In this document: one piece after another, positions 36,650-49,751 of the stretch
How the letters are laid out: every line of letters begins with the position of its first letter
Numbering within the stretch: position 1 is the first letter of the stretch
DNA from: Ignavibacteria bacterium
GTDB lineage: Bacteria; Bacteroidota; Ignavibacteria; Ignavibacteriales; Melioribacteraceae
Direction of reading: 5' to 3'
Assembly: GCA_012719345.1 (NCBI GenBank)
Contig: JAAYAN010000036.1
Location: 62,001 to 126,000 of the forward strand
DNA: 64,000 bases
Translations under genes and position numbers: made by a program
Notes under the pieces: model-generated
Told to the model about the DNA's origin: nothing
The model's input: the letters and a program-made list of their open reading frames with translations, nothing else
Databases searched by the model: none

Positions 36650-39427
36650 TTATTTCTTTTTCTTTGTAGTTTTCTTTACTTCCTTTTTTGATACTTTTTT
36701 TGCATTAGCTTTAGTATCCATAATTGCTGCACGGGCTGCCGAAAGTTTTGCTATAGGAACACGGAAAGGTGAACAACTCACATAATTTAATCCGAGTTTA
36801 TAACAGAATTCAACAGATGCAGGATCTCCGCCTTGCTCTCCGCATATACCGACTTTTAAGTCCGAACGTGTCTTGCGTCCGTCCTTAACTGCCATTTCAA
36901 TTAACTGTCCAACACCGTCCTGGTCAATCGTCTGGAAAGGATCGGAAGTTAAAATCTTCTGGTCGAGATATTCATTCATAAAACCGCCGATATCATCACG
37001 GCTGAATCCAAATGTCATTTGTGTTAAATCGTTTGTTCCAAACGAGAAAAACTGTGCGGTTTTTGCCATTCTTTCGCTTAGCAAACAAGCGCGGGGAATT
37101 TCGATCATTGTACCGTAGAGATAGTTTATCGATTTAACTTTGAATTTTTTACATACTTCTTCATATACTTTATCTGCAATTACTTTTGTAACATCCAATT
37201 CAGCTGCTTCGCAAGTTACCGGTATCATTATTTCCGGTTTTGGGTGATGGCCTTCTTTTATTAGCTCAAGAGTCGATTCGAAAATTGCACGGAACTGAAT
37301 TTCTGAAACTTCGGGATAGGTTATACTTAAACGAACTCCGCGATGACCCATCATAGGGTTATTTTCGTGCAAAGCCTCTCCGCGTTTTGCAACATCCGAA
37401 ACTTTAATTTTCAACTCTTTAGCTAATTCAGCTTGTTTTTCTTTACTCTGCGGAACAAATTCGTGCAATGGTGGATCGAGCAATCGGAAAGTTACAGGTA
37501 AATTATCCATTGCCAATAAGGTGGCTTTAATATCTTTTTTCATGTATGGATATAATTCGTTCAGCGCAATAACCCTTTCAGCCTGTGTATTGCTGAGAAT
37601 CATCTTGCGAAGCGCCAGCAAAGGTTTTTCTGATCCTGTTCCGTAAAACATATGTTCGGTTCTGAAAAGTCCTATTCCTTCTGCTCCAAAATCTCGTGCA
37701 ATCTTTGCGTCTTCAGGTGTTTCTGCATTTGTACGGACTCCCATTGTACGGAAAGAATCGACCATTTTCATAAATTGTTTGAAACGAGGATTTTCGGATG
37801 CGTCCATTAGTTTTAAAGCTTTCTGATATACGTGGCCTTTTGTTCCGTTTAAAGTTACAACATCTCCTTCTTTTAAAACAATGTTAGTTCCTTCAATTTT
37901 TGCCGATTTTGTTGCAGGATTAACATGCAGTTTTCCGGCTCCCACAATACAACATTTTCCCCAGCCGCGAGCTACAAGAGCTGCGTGAGAAGTCATTCCG
38001 CCGCGTGCAGTAAGTATTCCTGAAGCTGCGCGCATTCCTTCAACATCTTCGGGGTTGGTTTCTTCACGGATAAGAATTACAGTTTTTCCCTGGCGTTCCC
38101 ATGCAACTGCATCTTCCGCTGTGAAAACAAGCTGACCGACTGCGGCACCAGGACCGGCTGGCAAACCTTTTACTAATACAGGAACTTTCTTTTCTTCTGC
38201 GGGATCGCAAATAGGATGTAATAACTCATCAAGCTGAGCAGGCTCTACGCGTAATACAGCAGTTTTTTCATCAATAAGTTTTTCTTTTAACATATCCATT
38301 GCCATATTCAATGCAGCTGTTCCGGTACGTTTGCCTGTGCGGCACTGAAGCATGTATAATTTGCCTTCTTGAATTGTAAATTCAATATCGAGCATGTCTC
38401 TGTAATTTTTTTCGAGAATGTTACGGATTTTTTCCAACTCTTTATATGTTTTAGGCATTTGTTCCTGCATACTTTTCAAATGCTTATTCTGTTCATTTTT
38501 TGTGTCGTTATTTAACGGATTAGGAGTACGAATTCCGGCAACAACATCTTCTCCTTGTGCGTTTATTAACCATTCGCCATAGAATATATTTTCACCCGTT
38601 GCAGGGTTACGTGTAAATGCAACACCTGTAGCAGATGAATCGCCCATATTTCCGAATACCATTGCCTGTACGTTTACGGCAGTTCCCCAATTATCAGGAA
38701 TTCCTTCTATGCGGCGGTAGGAAATTGCTTTTTTCCCGTTCCAGCTTTTAAAAACAGCTTTTATTCCGCCGAACAATTGTTCTTTTGCATCGTCCGGAAA
38801 TTCTTTGCCGATTTCTTTCTTTATAGTTTTCTTAAAATCATCCGCCAATTGTTTTAAATCATCTGCGGTAAGATCTGTATCAAGCTCAACTTTTTTAGCT
38901 TTTTTGTAACTGTCAAGCATGTCATCCAGTTTTTTACGGATATTTATATCGAGTCCTTCAGCTTTGTCCATAACAACATCTGCATACATCATAATTAAAC
39001 GTCTGTACGAATCCCAAACAAAACGAGGATTATTAGTTTTTTTTATCAGACCGGGAATTGTGTCGGTGCAAAGTCCGACGTTAAGAACTGTGTCCATCAT
39101 TCCGGGCATTGAACTTCTTGCACCTGAACGGCAGGATAATAATAGCGGATTTTTAGCATCGCCGTATTTCATTCCCATTTCTGATTCAACTTTTTTCATT
39201 CCTGCCCAAACTTCATCTGCTAAAGTTTTTGGCAGTTCGTGATTATTTGCATAATAAGCTGTGCAACATTCTGTAGTAATTGTTAATCCTGCCGGAACTG
39301 GTAATTCCAGATTTACCATTTCTGCAAGATTTGCCCCTTTACCTCCCAGAAGATTTTTCATATCTGCTTTTCCTTCAGCTTTTTTGCCGCCGAAATAGTA
39401 AACATATTTGATCTTATTCTTAGCCAT
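36650..39427 (-). CDS. ppdK: Pyruvate, phosphate dikinase
   Basis: A 925-residue PPDK. It has an N-terminal ATP-grasp domain with GGKGANLAEM and DTVLNVGL, a central phospho-histidine domain with GGMTSHAALVARGWGKCC (catalytic His) and a C-terminal PEP/pyruvate barrel with EGIGLFRTEHMF and VGICGEQGGDP (catalytic Cys). It interconverts pyruvate, ATP and Pi with PEP, AMP and PPi, giving glycolytic or gluconeogenic flexibility. The last 20 or so residues are a Lys-rich tail (KKVSKKEVKKTTKKKK), which is unusual. A strong GGGAGGA Shine-Dalgarno lies before ATG 39427, only 19 bases after lpxK. Confidence 0.97.
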   Translation of the reverse strand: MAKNKIKYVYYFGGKKAEGKADMKNLLGGKGANLAEMVNLELPVPAGLTITTECCTAYYANNHELPKTLADEVWAGMKKVESEMGMKYGDAKNPLLLSCRSGARSSMPGMMDTVLNVGLCTDTIPGLIKKTNNPRFVWDSYRRLIMMYADVVMDKAEGLDINIRKKLDDMLDSYKKAKKVELDTDLTADDLKQLADDFKKTIKKEIGKEFPDDAKEQLFGGIKAVFKSWNGKKAISYRRIEGIPDNWGTAVNVQAMVFGNMGDSSATGVAFTRNPATGENIFYGEWLINAQGEDVVAGIRTPNPLNNDTKNEQNKHLKSMQEQMPKTYKELEKIRNILEKNYRDMLDIEFTIQEGKLYMLQCRTGKRTGTAALNMAMDMLKEKLIDEKTAVLRVEPAQLDELLHPICDPAEEKKVPVLVKGLPAGPGAAVGQLVFTAEDAVAWERQGKTVILIREETNPEDVEGMRAASGILTARGGMTSHAALVARGWGKCCIVGAGKLHVNPATKSAKIEGTNIVLKEGDVVTLNGTKGHVYQKALKLMDASENPRFKQFMKMVDSFRTMGVRTNAETPEDAKIARDFGAEGIGLFRTEHMFYGTGSEKPLLALRKMILSNTQAERVIALNELYPYMKKDIKATLLAMDNLPVTFRLLDPPLHEFVPQSKEKQAELAKELKIKVSDVAKRGEALHENNPMMGHRGVRLSITYPEVSEIQFRAIFESTLELIKEGHHPKPEIMIPVTCEAAELDVTKVIADKVYEEVCKKFKVKSINYLYGTMIEIPRACLLSERMAKTAQFFSFGTNDLTQMTFGFSRDDIGGFMNEYLDQKILTSDPFQTIDQDGVGQLIEMAVKDGRKTRSDLKVGICGEQGGDPASVEFCYKLGLNYVSCSPFRVPIAKLSAARAAIMDTKANAKKVSKKEVKKTTKKKK

Positions 39428-39446
39428 TAATAAGTCCTCCCTTTAT

Positions 39447-40493
39447 TTAGTTTGTTTTGCTTAATACTATTTTAGTTAGTTCTTCCTTATTTTCGATTTT
39501 TAAATCGATTTTCAAGTAATAAATATCAATATCGTCAAGTTCTTTGGAATAATTTTTTAACTTAACTGCATCCTTTTGGGTTGTAATTACAGAGTTAGCA
39601 TTCGTATCATAAAATTTTTTTCGTATAAGTTGAATTTCTTTAAGCGAATAATTTTTATGATCTTGAAAAAGAAGCTGGTTGTCTGCATCAATTTTATTCT
39701 TTGCAAGAATGCTTAAAAAAGAAACGGGATTGGCAATTCCGCTTACAACAAGACTTTTTTGTCCGGCAAAATCATTTAAACTGAAATACTCGTGGTTTTT
39801 AACATCAAAAAATCCTTCTGTTGTATAATATCCGTAAAAAATTTCTTTTCCTTTAAAGTACTTGTTTATATTTTCAGGTAATTCGTATTTTTCATCGAAT
39901 TTACGGTTAATTATTATTACATCTGCTCGTTTAACTGAACTGAACGGCTCCCGCATAATTCCCAAAGGTAAAAGATTTTGTTCAAGCGAATTTGTATCTA
40001 ATAAAAATCTTTGATCAAAAATTAAAATATCCAAATTCCTGTGTATCCATCTATGCTGAAACGCATCGTCTAAAACAATAGTTTCAAGCTTATATAGTTT
40101 ATTCAATTTTTGTGCGCCTTCAGTTCTTTTTTCGCAAACTGCAGCAGCAACTTTACATTCCATCGAAGCAAAATATATCTCGTCTCCGCATTGGTCAACT
40201 TCTGAAAGCATTTTTTCTCCGTCCGAAACAAGTAAAAAACCTTTTGTGCTTCTTCCGTAACCGCGGCTTAAAATTCCGCTTTTTATACCGGCATTCTTTA
40301 AAATTTTGCTAATCATAATAACAGCAGGTGTTTTCCCTGAGCCGCCTACAGTAATATTTCCTATAGAAATAACCTTGCATCCTGTTGTTTCGGTTTTGAA
40401 AATTCCCTTGTTAAACAAAAAATTACGAAAACCTATTACTGCATAATAGATTAAAACAAAGGGTGAAAGTAATATTTTTAGAAAATTATTCAG
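39447..40493 (-). CDS. lpxK: Tetraacyldisaccharide 4'-kinase, probable CTG start
   Basis: LpxK phosphorylates the 4' position of lipid A disaccharide at the inner membrane. The P-loop GNITVGGSGKTP, SRGYGR, DDAFQHR and TTQKDAVKL are family motifs. The first standard start codon (TTG at 40418) gives 323 residues and removes the N-terminal helix. Reading upstream in frame restores a family-like start, FLKILLSPFVLIYYAV then GFRNFLFNKGI. The frame closes at a TAA 15 bases further on, and the only plausible initiator is CTG at 40493-40491, nine bases after AGGAAG. That gives 348 residues and an eight-base overlap with the preceding gene. A sequencing error or another rare start are alternatives. 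Confidence 0.88.
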   Translation of the reverse strand: MNNFLKILLSPFVLIYYAVIGFRNFLFNKGIFKTETTGCKVISIGNITVGGSGKTPAVIMISKILKNAGIKSGILSRGYGRSTKGFLLVSDGEKMLSEVDQCGDEIYFASMECKVAAAVCEKRTEGAQKLNKLYKLETIVLDDAFQHRWIHRNLDILIFDQRFLLDTNSLEQNLLPLGIMREPFSSVKRADVIIINRKFDEKYELPENINKYFKGKEIFYGYYTTEGFFDVKNHEYFSLNDFAGQKSLVVSGIANPVSFLSILAKNKIDADNQLLFQDHKNYSLKEIQLIRKKFYDTNANSVITTQKDAVKLKNYSKELDDIDIYYLKIDLKIENKEELTKIVLSKTN

Positions 40494-41142
40494 CGATCTT
40501 GGCTTCCTGTGTTAACTTGATTAAAAGATTTTCAGTTTCCGATATTAAAACTGATGTTTCATCGTAATTCAAATCCGGATTTATTGTAATAGGATCTGAA
40601 AAAACAAGTGTTGCATTGCTGAACGGTTTGGGTATCTTAAAACTGTCCCAGCTTTTCAGCTCGAAATAATTGCTGTAATCTGTACCCACAAGAATAAGCG
40701 GTACGCCGGATTTTTTAGAAGCTATTACAGCGCCGGCTTTCATTTTTTCCGGCGGTCCTTTTGGTCCGTCGGGGGTTATACAAATACTTTTTTGCTGATG
40801 AAGAATGTTAACCAGTTCTTCAAGCGACTCTTTTCCGCCTTTGCTGCTGGATCCTCTTACAAGCATGTAGTTCCATTTCTTAAGAAGCCTGGCTAACAAT
40901 TCACCGTCTTTGCTTTGACTAACAAGGGCAACAAAATTTTTATCCCTGAAAAAAAACCAAGGTATAAGCATACTTCCGTGCCAAAAAGCAATAACAGCAT
41001 TTTTATCGTTTTCAAGAATATTTTTCAAGTATCCGTAGTTGATAATATTAATTTTAACTGTGCGGCACAAAATACCCAGCAAAAGATTTAGGAGACCGTA
41101 ACCAAGAATGTAAAAGAACTTTTTTTTAATTTGCTTAAACAT
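40486..41142 (-). CDS. DUF374 lysophospholipid acyltransferase, LpxJ-like
   Basis: A 218-residue protein with an N-terminal hydrophobic helix (about 8-25) and the DUF374 acyltransferase domain. AFWHGSMLIPWFF (about 51-63) carries the catalytic His, LVSQSKDGELLARLL and RGSSSKGGKESL follow, and ITPDGPKGP is the phosphate-binding loop. DUF374 includes LpxJ, a late lipid A secondary acyltransferase of epsilonproteobacteria. Its position between lpxB and lpxK strongly suggests a lipid A acyltransferase here (inference). Its start overlaps lpxB by eight bases and its end overlaps the proposed lpxK start by eight. Confidence 0.85.
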   Translation of the reverse strand: MFKQIKKKFFYILGYGLLNLLLGILCRTVKINIINYGYLKNILENDKNAVIAFWHGSMLIPWFFFRDKNFVALVSQSKDGELLARLLKKWNYMLVRGSSSKGGKESLEELVNILHQQKSICITPDGPKGPPEKMKAGAVIASKKSGVPLILVGTDYSNYFELKSWDSFKIPKPFSNATLVFSDPITINPDLNYDETSVLISETENLLIKLTQEAKIAE

Positions 41143-42265
41143 TTTTTATTTCTTCAATTATTATTTTTGCAGCTTCTTCAGAAGCATTTTTATTTCCCAG
41201 CAATTCTTCCAGAGCTGCCAGATCATTTTTCAACCGGTTATAATAATTAACGTCATCTAAAATTATAGAGCATTCTTCAGAAATTTTTCTGCTGTCAACA
41301 TCATTCTGAATTAACTCTTTTATTACGTTTTTTTGAAGAATTATATTTACAATAGCTATGTTTTTAATTTTAATAAGCACTCTGCCAATTTCATACGTCA
41401 AGCGCGAAGTTTTATAAACCACAACATAAGGAAGACAAAAAAGACCGGCTTCTAATGTTGAAGTGCCTGATTTAATAATTCCTAACCGGGAATATTTAAG
41501 AAGTTCGTATGTAAAGCCTTTAATTATCTTAAAATCTTCCAGCTCAGGTTTGCCTCTAAAAATATCTTCGCTTATATTCCCTGAACAAGCAATAACAGAC
41601 TGCAAATTGTATTTATCTGATAAATACCGGGCAGCTTTCACACATTCCGGAAGAATCAATTCTATTTCGTGATGGCGGCTTCCGGGCATTATAAGTAAAA
41701 TATCTTTCGATATTTCAAATTTTTTCTTGAACTCGTCTTCTTCAATAAAATTATAATTTTTTATTCTCTCAATTAATGGGTGTCCCGAAAAAGTTACTTT
41801 TACACCTTCTTTTTTATAAAGCTCCTTTTCGAAAGGGAAAAGCACAATCATATGATCGACAAGCTTTTTTATCTTCGAAATACGTCCTTTCCCCCAAGCC
41901 CATATTTGCGGAGAAATGTAGTAAATAATTTTCAGCCCTAATTTTTTAAGTTTTTTTGCAATGCTTAAATTAAATCCGGGATAATCGATAAGCACAGCGG
42001 TTTTTGTGTTAAAAAACAAAACGTTATCAATAATATCTTTTTGAACTTTTTTTATAAACGGTATGTGTTTAATCACTTCCGTAAAACCAAGGAAAGCAAG
42101 TTTTTCGATATCGTAAACAGCATTTAAACCCGCGTCCTTCATATTTTTTCCGCCGATGCCGAAAATGTTAATATCCGGCTTAAACCTAATTAATTCTTTA
42201 ATTAAAGCCGAACCGTGAAGGTCGCCGGAAGCTTCACCGGCAATTATTAGCAACGAATCATTCAA
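41135..42265 (-). CDS. lpxB: Lipid-A-disaccharide synthase
   Basis: A 376-residue GT-B glycosyltransferase of family 19. LIIAGEASGDLHGSALI (about 5-21) and GIGGKNMKDAG are the N-terminal LpxB hallmarks; YYISPQIWAWGKGRI is diagnostic; the C-terminal half has IMPGSRHHEI and SRLGIIKSGTSTLEAGLF. It joins UDP-diacylglucosamine and lipid X at the inner-membrane surface. It begins two bases after the ICMT-like gene and overlaps the DUF374 gene by eight bases, so these are coupled. Confidence 0.97.
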   Translation of the reverse strand: MNDSLLIIAGEASGDLHGSALIKELIRFKPDINIFGIGGKNMKDAGLNAVYDIEKLAFLGFTEVIKHIPFIKKVQKDIIDNVLFFNTKTAVLIDYPGFNLSIAKKLKKLGLKIIYYISPQIWAWGKGRISKIKKLVDHMIVLFPFEKELYKKEGVKVTFSGHPLIERIKNYNFIEEDEFKKKFEISKDILLIMPGSRHHEIELILPECVKAARYLSDKYNLQSVIACSGNISEDIFRGKPELEDFKIIKGFTYELLKYSRLGIIKSGTSTLEAGLFCLPYVVVYKTSRLTYEIGRVLIKIKNIAIVNIILQKNVIKELIQNDVDSRKISEECSIILDDVNYYNRLKNDLAALEELLGNKNASEEAAKIIIEEIKNV

Positions 42266-42267
42266 AT

Positions 42268-42858
42268 TTAAACCAGTTTAATTTCGAATATCCAAAATAA
42301 TATCAAAATCAAAATAATAATAAAAAAAGCCTGAAGAGTTCTTTTCTCAGATTTCAATCCTTTTTTGATATCGTATTCAGGCTGCACTATACCCGGGTTT
42401 TTGAATGGTGTTAATCGGGGAAAAATTCTTGGGACTTCCTTGAAATATAAATTGTAATTATCGAAAGTTGCAGCCAGATATCTTTCTTCTTCAAGAATTA
42501 TATAATAATATTGAAAAAGAAAAAACAAAATTGCAATTATCTGCAGATACGGAAATAAAGACATTGAAATTATGCCTATTCCAAAATAGATAAGAATATT
42601 TCCAAAATAAAGAGGATTGCGTATATAGCTGTAAGGACCGCTAATAACCAGAAACGAGCCTCCTACCTTTCCGGTTGTACGTGTTTCGCTTCCTGCGTGG
42701 CTCACAGCCCAAAGCCTGATCAGTTCGCCAGCAAGAGCAATTAAAAAACCTGTTGCAAGACTGATACCCGAAACACGTTGAAAAAGCAGCATAATTATTA
42801 CAAACGGTATTGGGGTATAACTTCTGTATTTAAATAATAATTTTGATAATTTTTCCAT
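42268..42858 (-). CDS. Isoprenylcysteine/phospholipid methyltransferase-like membrane protein
   Basis: A 196-residue integral membrane protein with about five hydrophobic helices. The C-terminal part has GPYSYIRNPLYFGNILIYFG and then EEERYLAATFDNYNLYFKEVPRIFP, the G-P-Y-x-x-x-R-N-P-x-Y pattern and E-E-R motif of the ICMT/PEMT family, which bind SAM. Bacterial members methylate lipids or unknown small substrates. It sits just before lpxB, so a lipid substrate is plausible but not shown. Spacings of three bases upstream and two downstream place it in the lipid A operon. Confidence 0.82.
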   Translation of the reverse strand: MEKLSKLLFKYRSYTPIPFVIIMLLFQRVSGISLATGFLIALAGELIRLWAVSHAGSETRTTGKVGGSFLVISGPYSYIRNPLYFGNILIYFGIGIISMSLFPYLQIIAILFFLFQYYYIILEEERYLAATFDNYNLYFKEVPRIFPRLTPFKNPGIVQPEYDIKKGLKSEKRTLQAFFIIILILILFWIFEIKLV

Positions 42859-42861
42859 TTT

Positions 42862-43593
42862 TTATCCTAATGAATATATTTCTTTGCGTTTTAATTCCGC
42901 TTGATGTCTTTTTTTTAATTTTTTCTTTAACAACATACTTTCAACTCTTTTCTTTACATCGGAAAAATTGGAATAAGGAAAAAAACTTATGCGATTGATT
43001 TCGCAGAATTTAAGCAAAGATTGTTTTGCAAAAATGAAATCGCAAAATTGTGCCGGACAGGTATCACTGTATCCGTCGCCAATAAATATTGTAAATTCGT
43101 TATCGCCGCTGTTATTTAAGATGTGATTTCTTTTGCAATTTGCGCACTTTTTGCATTCTTCATCCGGAAAAGGGAAAACAGGTATAAATTCTCCTTTTTC
43201 ACCGAACTCAAGTCTGTTGTAAAATCTCGGGATATAATCCAGTCCGTTATTTTTCAATATTCTATCGATATAATAATTGAATCCGTCGCTGACAATAAAA
43301 ATATCAAATCCGTTTTTATTGCATAAATCTGCAAAAGATTTAAAATGCTCGTCAATTTTTATACTGTCAATAAAATTTTCAAATTCGTTCGGAATATAAT
43401 TTTTAATAGTTTCGCACAATAAAATCCACGATTCTCTTGAGTTAATTTCTTTATCAATCCATCTTCGAACAATTTCTCTGGCTTTTTCTTTGTTTCCGAA
43501 TTTCAGAAAAAATTCCTCACCGACATCTGTTGTTGAAATAGTTCCGTCGAAATCGATAAAAATCTTAAATATTTTCTTCTCTTCAAAAATCAT
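42862..43593 (-). CDS. HAD-family phosphatase, MtnX/PHOSPHO1-like
   Basis: A 243-residue HAD subfamily IB protein. Motif I is FIDFDGTIS (about 11-19), motif II IVSDGF (about 100-105), and motif III/IV IGDGYSDTCPAQ. A CKKCANCKRNHI cluster just before the last motif parallels the cysteine-containing loop in MtnX and PHOSPHO1 relatives. Known members remove phosphate from 2-hydroxy-3-keto-5-methylthiopentenyl-1-phosphate or from phosphoethanolamine/phosphocholine. No other methionine-salvage gene is nearby, and a lipid-headgroup substrate would fit the neighbourhood better (inference). The tail is Lys/Arg-rich. It shares one base with the smc stop. Confidence 0.8.
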   Translation of the reverse strand: MIFEEKKIFKIFIDFDGTISTTDVGEEFFLKFGNKEKAREIVRRWIDKEINSRESWILLCETIKNYIPNEFENFIDSIKIDEHFKSFADLCNKNGFDIFIVSDGFNYYIDRILKNNGLDYIPRFYNRLEFGEKGEFIPVFPFPDEECKKCANCKRNHILNNSGDNEFTIFIGDGYSDTCPAQFCDFIFAKQSLLKFCEINRISFFPYSNFSDVKKRVESMLLKKKLKKRHQAELKRKEIYSLG

Positions 43594-47186: not shown

Positions 47187-49751
47187 TTACTGCATTAAAG
47201 CAAATTGCTTAAATGCGTTAATTACATAATAAATGCTAGCTTCCGACATTTGGAAGTAAAGAATAACAAACCCCCACGAAAGAAATATAAAAACAATACT
47301 GAAAAAATAAGCTTTGGCTGGGTGTATGTCTAAAATAACATAAATACCCTTTATCAGCCGCTGGAAAATCCATAAAAAGAAAAGAGCTAAAAATATGTAA
47401 ATATAGGTATTGTATTCGTGAGCTTTTAAAATTTTATAGAGAGCCAATTCCAGCGGAAGCAGCAAAAGAATCGGAAGAAAAGACCAGGTTGTCATAAAAT
47501 AAATGCTTGATATAAGCACTCTGTTTTTTAGGAACATTGATGCAATCTTAATAAAGAGAGTAATTGAAAGTATAAACAAAAGCAGGATAATAAAAAGATA
47601 AATAAAAGCTTTAACCGGACTGATGCTTAATCCTCCGATAAAGTTGGTAAAAGAAATGCTGCCGAGAGAAATTATTGTTTTATCGAGGAATAAGTTGTTT
47701 TTAAGATAAAAAAGCAGATTCGTAAACAAAAGAGATAACGAACCCACAATTAAAACCAGAAGAAAATTTGAATGGAATCCCGATAAAATGCGCTGATCGC
47801 GGACATCCGCATAGAAATTATAAGGGCGAAGCAGAGCGCGGGAGGCGTCTTCCCTGAATTTTCTTTTTGAGTTTATAAGCATAGCCGCCAGCGACGAGAT
47901 GACCAGGCACACGATTAAAAAAAACAGCGGTGAATCATTCGGGTCGGTACCTATTGGGATGTTAAATTTTTCGCCGTTTTTAAGTTTCGATTTGATTATG
48001 TTGTAGCTAAGTCTGTTTGTTTTTCGGTCTATTCCTAAAATTCCGGTATAACATAAATTCTGAGGATTATATCCTGCGGCAAGGGATGAGTAATGAATTT
48101 TGTAATCAAACATCGAATTAAAAATTATTCCGTTTAATTTCTTTTCGATTACAAAATCCAGTGCGTTTTCAATATTACGTGCTTGCGACTCGTATGAATT
48201 ATTATTTTTGTAGCCGTTTGTGCTTCCGTTAAAAGTAGGGTATGTGTAAGGTCCGATAATTATATTTTCTGCACCGAATTTGATAATTGCATCGTTAATC
48301 CTGTCAATCTGTCCTTCAAACGACTTGCTGAAAATTTCGAGGCAGATAAAATCAAGGTTTTCAATTTTGCTTTCGGGAATACCTGCAAATGAGGCAAAAG
48401 TAACTTTACCGCTTCGGTTTTTAATTATTTTTGCAGAATTTTTAACAAAATCCAAGTGTTCCTGCGAATAGGGTAAAAAACCTGTCCCGATAGAATATCC
48501 TATAATTACGTTGCTTTGCAAACCGGAAATTACTTGCGAAATGTATCTTCCGGTTTTTTCGGAAAAATCATCGCTGCTGATGATTTCTGACGGTATCGAA
48601 ATAAAAGGAAGTTCAATAATTGCATATAACCCTATTTGTTCGCATCCCATCAGTATTTCGGGGGATGGCAGCGAATGTGAAAAAATTACAGTATTAAAAC
48701 CTGCATTTTTAATAATCTTAAGATCATTGATAAAGTTTTTATAAGCAGAAGAATTACCTTTTTTGAATAGTGGCTGAATATATGTTACTGCGTAAATATT
48801 TAATTTTCCCTCATTAAAAATAAGTTTGCTGCTTTCGGAATTTTGATTAACAAGGGGTAAAGTTTCAATTTTTCTATCGATAAGAGTATCGTTTTTAAAC
48901 AGCGAAATTTTTTGTATATAGGAATAAGGCTGTTCGGGCGACCAAAGATTAGGATTGTTTATTGACTGCAAAACAGATGCAGATGCTTCCTGATGTGAAA
49001 GGATAGTTTTTACAGAATCAATTAACTGATTGCTTTGATTATATAATGCAGAACTTAACGTAAAAACATCGCTTCTTTTGTTTATATCGTAAGTCTCAGG
49101 AAAAAAAGCTTTAATACTAGTCTTTATTTCCGTGCGATTATTATTTTTGTTTACTCTCAGATTTGAGACAGTATTTTTTATCCAGAATTTAGGTTCAACC
49201 GATAAATAAACATTATCAAAAACACCGCCGGATATTTCGGGTAAAAGGTAATTTTTTAATATTGGAACAGATGCTCCTTTTTCCGAATGGAAGAATACAT
49301 GAAGTTTTATGTAGTTTTTTTTGTTCTTCAAAAAAAGATTTTCATTCAGTTCAAATTCTGCAGGAATTTCACCGAATGCATGTTTAAAGATAATTTCATC
49401 ATTTATTTGAATGTTTACAGAAGAACTGATTTTTGAAATGTGAAGATTTATAGTGTTCTTCTTAAAGTCGAATTGTTTTATATCTATTTCGCGTTCAAAT
49501 ATTATTTCTTCTGTTCCGCTGAAACTTGCAGGCAGCGAAAGTGAAGACTTGTTTTCAGGCTTTTCGGGAAGGTAAGCACGCCAGCCGCTTTTCAATTCGA
49601 TAATTTTACGCTTCGAGGAAGTATTTGTATTTTCCCTAAAAACATCTTTCTGGGAAATTCCTGATAATTCCTTAATTAGTATTTGACCATTGACGGTGAG
49701 GACGGAGAATCCTAAAATCAGAGAAAAAAATAACCTGTAAAAATGTATCAT
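47187..49751 (-). CDS. Membrane protein with GH2-like ectodomain, probably non-catalytic, and Yip1-like C-terminus
   Basis: About 854 residues from ATG 49751 (an in-frame ATG at 49778 adds nine; positions here count from 49778). A signal peptide (to about 31) leads to a GH2 sugar-binding jelly roll (about 60-200, with SGGVFDNVYLSV), an Ig-like domain (to about 310, with the GH2 signature NLWSPEQPYSY) and a TIM-barrel region (about 320-600, with KNAGFNTVIFSHSLPSPEI and CEQIGLYAIIELPF). The acid/base position, Asn-Glu in active enzymes, reads GYSIGTGF (Gly-Thr, about 431-432), and the expected nucleophile strand IIIGPYTYP has no Glu. The C-terminal third has about seven membrane helices beginning at 616, with a basic RALLRPYNFYADVR segment like bacterial Yip1 proteins. 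Role unknown; a glycan-binding receptor is one possibility. Confidence 0.68.
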   Translation of the reverse strand: MIHFYRLFFSLILGFSVLTVNGQILIKELSGISQKDVFRENTNTSSKRKIIELKSGWRAYLPEKPENKSSLSLPASFSGTEEIIFEREIDIKQFDFKKNTINLHISKISSSVNIQINDEIIFKHAFGEIPAEFELNENLFLKNKKNYIKLHVFFHSEKGASVPILKNYLLPEISGGVFDNVYLSVEPKFWIKNTVSNLRVNKNNNRTEIKTSIKAFFPETYDINKRSDVFTLSSALYNQSNQLIDSVKTILSHQEASASVLQSINNPNLWSPEQPYSYIQKISLFKNDTLIDRKIETLPLVNQNSESSKLIFNEGKLNIYAVTYIQPLFKKGNSSAYKNFINDLKIIKNAGFNTVIFSHSLPSPEILMGCEQIGLYAIIELPFISIPSEIISSDDFSEKTGRYISQVISGLQSNVIIGYSIGTGFLPYSQEHLDFVKNSAKIIKNRSGKVTFASFAGIPESKIENLDFICLEIFSKSFEGQIDRINDAIIKFGAENIIIGPYTYPTFNGSTNGYKNNNSYESQARNIENALDFVIEKKLNGIIFNSMFDYKIHYSSLAAGYNPQNLCYTGILGIDRKTNRLSYNIIKSKLKNGEKFNIPIGTDPNDSPLFFLIVCLVISSLAAMLINSKRKFREDASRALLRPYNFYADVRDQRILSGFHSNFLLVLIVGSLSLLFTNLLFYLKNNLFLDKTIISLGSISFTNFIGGLSISPVKAFIYLFIILLLFILSITLFIKIASMFLKNRVLISSIYFMTTWSFLPILLLLPLELALYKILKAHEYNTYIYIFLALFFLWIFQRLIKGIYVILDIHPAKAYFFSIVFIFLSWGFVILYFQMSEASIYYVINAFKQFALMQ

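What the first reader, a model, noticed from the sequence alone, without database searches (positions are those of the whole stretch)
47187..49751. GH2-fold ectodomain without catalytic glutamates, fused to a Yip1-like membrane domain
The protein keeps the jelly roll, Ig-like domain and TIM-barrel signatures of glycoside hydrolase family 2. The acid/base Asn-Glu reads Gly-Thr, and the nucleophile strand has no Glu. The last third is a multi-pass membrane domain, starting with a basic RALLRP segment like Yip1 proteins. I know of no characterised protein with this order. It may be a glycan sensor, or a scaffold at the head of a long operon (smc, lipid A genes, ppdK).
Basis: partly seen in the sequence, partly recalled or inferred. 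Interest (0 to 1): 0.66.

Follow-up and report, generated by a model that had tools for sequence, protein, structure and literature searches.

The report
Dead-enzyme membrane protein beside chromosome gene
A bacterial inner-membrane protein carries a sugar-cutting-enzyme fold that has lost its cutting residues, joined to a Yip1 membrane domain known from trafficking and membrane-shaping proteins, and it sits next to the chromosome-organising gene smc (or, in one branch, the division gene ftsZ), which makes it a candidate unknown part of the machinery for growth and division.

Summary
It encodes a signal peptide, a complete GH2 fold (jelly roll, Ig-like, TIM barrel; AF2 pLDDT 87, best Foldseek hits all GH2, profile E 1e-61), one linker TM, a basic cytosolic segment and a five-TM domain that orthologs place in Pfam Yip1. 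Both catalytic glutamates are lost (Thr423-Gly424, Pro501). It is a single-copy, vertically inherited family present in nearly every genome of its order (Ignavibacteriales) and in 115 of 392 sampled genomes of the phylum. None of 124 aligned copies has both glutamates, yet most (85) keep the nucleophile Glu, so the window copy is the extreme case. The best-conserved part is the cytosolic segment, not the enzyme cleft. The ectodomain is dispensable: one clade has a TIM barrel only, another no ectodomain at all. The gene lies about 10-30 bp upstream of smc in 71 of 71 order-level loci and keeps that place even without the ectodomain; the TIM-only clade has it directly after ftsZ. I infer a non-catalytic membrane factor tied to chromosome/division machinery, its ectodomain a ligand-binding accessory. 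Function is untested.

The parts
47187..49751 (-). whole gene, 854 aa (P0001), GH2-fold ectodomain + Yip1-like membrane domain
   Evidence: ortholog in nearly all relatives
49683..49751 (-). signal peptide, residues 1-23 (Q23, invariant in the order, at its end)
   Evidence: sequence; helix 2-17 in the model; invariant Q23
49188..49682 (-). jelly-roll (sugar-binding-like) domain, about residues 24-188
   Evidence: DSSP strands; GH2_N hits in orthologs
48852..49187 (-). Ig-like domain, about residues 189-300 (PF00703, above cut-off at 219-294)
47952..48851 (-). TIM barrel, about residues 301-600; acid/base position is Thr423-Gly424, nucleophile position is Pro501
48480..48485 (-). codons 423-424, lost acid/base Asn-Glu (reads Thr-Gly)
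   Evidence: profile alignment to 8dhe, 5z1a, 3cmg, 5uj6, 6ed1
48249..48251 (-). codon 501, lost nucleophile Glu (reads Pro; Glu in 54 of 67 order-level sequences)
47868..47927 (-). linker transmembrane helix TM1, residues 609-628
   Evidence: DSSP and hydropathy
47778..47867 (-). cytosolic juxtamembrane segment KRKFREDASRALLRPYNFYADVRDQRILSG, residues 629-658: most conserved part of the family
47190..47780 (-). Yip1-like five-TM region, about residues 658-854, with conserved W756-S-F-L-P760
43593..47177 (-). smc, 9 bp downstream, same strand
36650..43593 (-). rest of the same-strand run: HAD phosphatase, ICMT/PEMT-like, lpxB, DUF374 acyltransferase-like, lpxK, ppdK

Best explanation
This is the window's copy of an ancient, single-copy, vertically inherited inner-membrane protein family of Ignavibacteria and related classes. 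Its working core is a Yip1-like five-TM domain with a strongly conserved basic segment on the cytosolic side (sequence and models shown; sidedness inferred). The periplasmic GH2 fold is a pseudo-glycosidase: it cannot do canonical two-glutamate GH2 chemistry and is kept as a binding or structural accessory, in the way Klotho or the 4F2hc ectodomain use dead glycosidase folds (analogy from general knowledge). I infer that the core acts at the membrane in chromosome organisation or cell division: its cytosolic segment recruits or positions a partner made together with it (SMC in most lineages, the FtsA/FtsZ ring in one clade) or remodels membrane there, while the ectodomain contacts an envelope ligand (peptidoglycan, another glycan or a protein). 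Shown: architecture, loss of catalytic residues, dispensable ectodomain, conserved linkage. Inferred: partner, ligand and process.
For: GH2 fold. None of 124 aligned sequences has both glutamates (acid/base Glu in 3, nucleophile Glu in 85). Yip1; the third TM of the Yip1 domain carries W756-x-F-L-P760, matching the eukaryotic YIPF motif 3 (phi-phi-G-Y-x-phi-phi-P...; PMC6682643), and one search aligns it Trp to Tyr and Pro to Pro. Presence: 56 of 58 relatives, 115 of 392 phylum genomes. The cytosolic segment is the most conserved part (mean majority 0.81 against 0.56 for the TIM barrel); the window copy has 0 of 20 deviations there but 18 of 62 in the TIM barrel and 12 of 28 in the jelly roll, the most of 67 sequences. 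Natural deletions: in genus g71 of family f13 all 7 genomes have the stand-alone membrane domain, directly upstream of smc in 7 of 7; in family f35 all 27 genomes have a TIM-only version, directly downstream of ftsZ in 9 of 9 loci with flank. smc next in 71 of 71 order-level loci with room and in 30 of 41 loci across classes, while upstream neighbours vary. Tree distances correlate with smc at 0.95. Archaeal members of the same Pfam family were predicted to act in membrane remodelling (PMC5898192).
Against: No direct evidence of contact with SMC or FtsZ; gene neighbourhood can reflect shared expression only. In family f7 the gene instead precedes hrcA-grpE-dnaJ and smc lies elsewhere, and in other class-level loci (for example L073, L081, L084, L086, L087) smc is not adjacent. 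Some lineages lack the gene altogether (several f13 genera), so it is not universally essential. The retained nucleophile Glu in most copies is unexplained by a purely structural ectodomain. The Yip1 assignment rests on orthologs: the window copy scores below threshold and profile-profile comparison with bacterial Yip1 is weak (probability 18%).
Confidence: 0.42

Rival explanations
1. Glycan or peptidoglycan sensor: the pseudo-GH2 ectodomain binds a sugar in the periplasm and the Yip1 domain passes the signal inward.
For: GH2 fold kept over great distances with conserved cleft-region residues (Y324, R356, E380, D467, E472, N545 and the Glu at 501 in most orthologs); neighbours include lipid A genes; dead glycosidase folds often become binders.
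Against: Ectodomain reduced to a TIM barrel in f35 and absent in f13 g71; in the window copy several of these residues are lost (R356I, K359H, E501P); no signalling domain on the cytosolic side.
Confidence: 0.22
2. Enzyme by another route: most family members keep the nucleophile Glu and hydrolyse, transglycosylate or do other chemistry without the usual acid/base; the window lineage lost this later.
For: Glu at the nucleophile position in 54 of 67 order-level and 31 of 58 wide-set sequences; other conserved polar residues in the barrel.
Against: Acid/base Glu absent in all but 3 of 124 sequences, and those 3 lack the nucleophile; a clade without the barrel keeps the gene.
Confidence: 0.1
3. 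Transporter, channel or lipid-handling membrane protein; the smc and ftsZ neighbours reflect shared growth-related expression only.
For: YIPF proteins have been suggested to be channels, transporters or receptors (PMC6682643); lpxB, lpxK, DUF374 and ICMT/PEMT-like genes lie in the same run; compact core with conserved prolines.
Against: The best conserved part is a charged cytosolic segment rather than the TM interior; linkage to chromosome/division genes recurs in two clades with different gene partners.
Confidence: 0.22
4. Artefact: assembly chimera, frameshift or decaying pseudogene.
For: The window copy is the most divergent of 67 aligned copies in jelly roll and TIM barrel.
Against: Open frame of 854 aa with full-length orthologs of the same order in dozens of genomes; confident model; cytosolic segment perfectly kept.
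Confidence: 0.01

Closest known systems
GH2 beta-glucuronidases (8dhe, 5z1a, 6mvf; PF02837-PF00703-PF02836)
   Same: three-domain order and fold over about 570 residues; TIM barrel alignable throughout
   Different: acid/base and nucleophile glutamates not kept together in any copy; followed by a membrane domain
Yip1 / YIPF family (PF04893, COG2881)
   Same: five TM segments after a basic cytosolic segment ending in a proline; Y/W-x-phi-phi-P motif in the third TM; Pfam cut-off passed by orthologs and by the stand-alone f13 copy
   Different: preceded by a signal peptide, a periplasmic ectodomain and an extra TM; signature RxFRE..RAL.RPYNFFADIRDQR not seen in the 22 ordinary Yip1 proteins aligned (A4); window copy below cut-off
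Klotho (dead GH1 folds) and 4F2hc/rBAT (GH13-fold ectodomain), from general knowledge
   Same: non-catalytic glycosidase fold as ectodomain of a membrane protein
   Different: different GH family, membrane part and organisms; no homology claimed
Archaeal COG2881 membrane cassettes (PMC5898192)
   Same: Yip1-type membrane protein, predicted role in membrane remodelling and perhaps division
   Different: no GH2 ectodomain described; different neighbours

Membership tests
Glycoside hydrolase family 2 | jelly roll + Ig-like + TIM barrel fold | tested here: met
Glycoside hydrolase family 2 | acid/base Glu after Asn on strand 4 | tested here: not met
   Thr423-Gly424; Glu in only 3 of 124 family sequences
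Glycoside hydrolase family 2 | nucleophile Glu on strand 7 | tested here: not met
   Pro501 in the window copy; Glu kept in 85 of 124 family sequences
Glycoside hydrolase family 2 | glycosidase activity | not testable with these tools
   needs assay
Yip1 domain family (PF04893) | Pfam profile score above the curated cut-off | tested here: inconclusive
   met for orthologs (35.7 bits L086, 29.6 bits in G093) and for the stand-alone copy (32.8 bits); not met for the window protein
Yip1 domain family (PF04893) | five TM segments, N-terminal side cytosolic, C-terminus outside | tested here: inconclusive
   predicted helices and hydropathy agree; sidedness inferred from signal peptide and helix count only
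Yip1 domain family (PF04893) | YIPF motif 3 in the third TM, phi-phi-G-Y-x-phi-phi-P | tested here: met
   core Y/W-x-phi-phi-P as W756-S-F-L-P760 (the motif's Gly is Thr); W756 invariant, P760 invariant or nearly so, aligned with A-Y-S-Y-T-P of bacterial Yip1
Yip1 domain family (PF04893) | YIPF motif 1, K/R-phi/T-x-x-phi-phi-x-P | tested here: inconclusive
   phi-phi-x-P present (L640-L641-R642-P643), no K/R seven residues before the proline (sequence)
Yip1 domain family (PF04893) | match to a solved Yip1 structure | not testable with these tools
   C-terminal model has no PDB match and no Yip1 structure was found in the PDB by sequence

The most novel reading that the evidence does not exclude
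An unrecognised membrane-anchored cell-cycle factor that physically couples the chromosome organiser SMC (and in another clade the FtsZ ring) to the envelope, with a dead glycosidase as periplasmic sensor or anchor: an ancient conserved part of the division or segregation machinery in Ignavibacteria and related classes.
Probability: 0.22. Interest if true: 0.87.

Novelty: new variant of a known kind. Interest (0 to 1): 0.64.

Why it matters
[quoted passage not shown] Here is a large, single-copy, deeply conserved family in which evolution has already made the informative deletions (whole ectodomain, TIM only, membrane domain only) and in which the gene stays next to smc or ftsZ. That gives a concrete, testable handle on what a prokaryotic Yip1 domain does and on whether SMC has a membrane partner in this phylum. 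It also warns annotators: automatic beta-galactosidase/glucuronidase labels on these genes would be wrong.

Tried and rejected
Pfam scan of the window protein alone: only the Ig-like GH2 domain passes; Yip1 is invisible there and appeared only through orthologs. Profile-profile comparison with bacterial Yip1 proteins gave weak support (probability 18%). Foldseek of the C-terminal model against PDB found nothing, and no solved Yip1 structure was found by sequence. Literature searches for a GH-Yip1 fusion, pseudo-GH2 membrane proteins, or Yip1 near smc gave none; one (Yip1 with FtsZ) led to the archaeal survey PMC5898192. Promoter scan around the gene start: no more sites than in shuffles, so no promoter claim is made. 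Naming the outlying classes was not possible: the single genome-contig scan showed only the best 80 of 325 relatives, all titled as Ignavibacteria, Bacteroidetes/Chlorobi-type or unnamed bacterium MAGs. Rejected: pseudogene/assembly artefact; recent horizontal gain (single-copy, distances track smc at r 0.95). Not tested: presence outside the phylum.

Full report
1. What is there. The gene runs on the minus strand from ATG at 49751 to the stop at 47187-47189 and encodes 854 residues. The plus-strand frame is full of stops. An AlphaFold2 model made with 66 orthologs is confident throughout (pLDDT 87.2, pTM 0.84): signal-peptide helix, beta-sandwich, Ig-like domain, alpha/beta barrel, linker helix 609-628, two short helices 630-651, and the membrane helices of a five-TM region up to residue 854.

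2. The ectodomain is GH2 by fold and by descent. Against the PDB the model's best 50 Foldseek hits are all GH2-type enzymes, mainly glucuronidases (E down to 6e-31, target TM mostly 0.5-0.8). A profile of 58 orthologs matches Tannerella glucuronidase 8dhe at E 1.4e-61 along profile positions 39-612.

3. It is not a GH2 enzyme in the usual sense. In the printed alignments the catalytic Asn-Glu falls on the family's Ser-Ser/Gly-Ser (Thr423-Gly424 here) and the nucleophile Glu on a position that is Pro501 here. Over 124 aligned sequences (two overlapping alignments, so not all independent) none has both glutamates; 3 have the acid/base, 85 the nucleophile. So the acid/base was lost almost family-wide, the nucleophile is kept in most of the order (54 of 67), and the window copy has lost both. 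The window copy is also the most deviant of 67 at conserved sites in the jelly roll (12 of 28) and barrel (18 of 62), but deviates at 0 of 20 conserved sites of the cytosolic segment. A2 was chosen by similarity to the window protein, which should have worked against that result.

4. The membrane domain is Yip1-like. PF04893 is the only family that recurs widely among the C-termini (33 of 46, best 1.2e-9). L086 passes the curated cut-offs for GH2_N, GH2, GH2_C and Yip1 in one protein; an ortholog in G093 passes at 29.6 bits. The YIPF motif in the third TM, whose proline is essential in yeast (P180; PMC6682643), is present as W756-S-F-L-P760 and conserved through the order. The window copy itself falls below the Pfam threshold, and profile-profile support against 22 bacterial Yip1 proteins is weak. 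No solved Yip1 structure was found.

5. A conserved family, not an oddity. Full-length orthologs, one per genome, occur in nearly all genomes of the order and in other orders and classes of the phylum. The best named hits are Ignavibacteriales, Melioribacter and Ignavibacterium. Tree distances correlate with those of smc at 0.95.

6. Gene linkage. At order level smc is the next gene in 71 of 71 loci where the contig continues, mostly 5-30 bp away. Across classes it is next in 30 of 41 loci, while the upstream neighbours change. In family f7 the gene instead precedes hrcA-grpE-dnaJ.

7. Natural deletions. In genus g71 of family f13, seven of seven genomes encode only the membrane domain (the 258-aa example passes PF04893 at 32.8 bits), directly upstream of smc. 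In family f35, 27 of 27 genomes encode a barrel-only version, homologous to the full family over 422 columns (E 1.2e-12), and ftsZ lies directly upstream in nine of nine loci with enough flank. Other f13 genera have no detectable copy.

8. Reading. The part that evolution keeps longest is the cytosolic segment plus Yip1 domain next to chromosome or division genes. The ectodomain is a non-catalytic accessory that is missing in whole or part in two clades and is drifting in the window lineage. (That these clades lost it, rather than never gained it, is inferred from their scattered position and from the residual barrel.) The best-supported explanation is therefore a membrane factor of chromosome organisation or division with a dead-glycosidase ectodomain as binder or spacer. 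Linkage is the only evidence for the process, so confidence is moderate (0.42). A glycan sensor, a transporter-like function with incidental linkage, and a non-canonical enzyme remain as rivals.

9. Novelty. Both parts are known folds. The fusion, its depth of conservation, the dispensable ectodomain and the smc/ftsZ linkage were not found described in the papers searched.

Noticed in passing
L220:9929-10705 (+) and L267-L273: Stand-alone copies of the Yip1 membrane domain without any ectodomain, immediately upstream of smc in all seven genomes of one genus (family f13).
   Followed up: yes
L254:4046-5608, L253:4314-5918, L257-L266: TIM-barrel-only version fused to the membrane domain, directly downstream of ftsA-ftsZ or ftsZ, in family f35 (27 of 27 genomes have the gene).
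   Followed up: partly
L071, L076-L079, L085: In family f7 the gene heads hrcA-grpE-dnaJ and is divergent from a very long ORF of about 2300 aa that looks SprA-like; smc there follows mreC/mreD-like genes (L207, L217).
   Followed up: no
L252:4330-7057: In G097 the ortholog appears split by frame changes (569-aa and 418-aa frames); decaying gene or assembly error not resolved.
   Followed up: no
L070:8241-10808, L082:7957-10662, L086:8258-10744: The only three aligned family members with a Glu at the acid/base position all lack the nucleophile Glu.
   Followed up: partly
G000 (whole genome): No PF04893 (Yip1) match anywhere in the window's own genome, although many relatives have separate Yip1 proteins.
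   Followed up: partly
window 40486-41142 and 42268-42858 (-): DUF374 acyltransferase-like and ICMT/PEMT-like genes of unclear role lie between smc and lpxK; the HAD-ICMT-lpxB order after smc recurs in many relatives.
   Followed up: no
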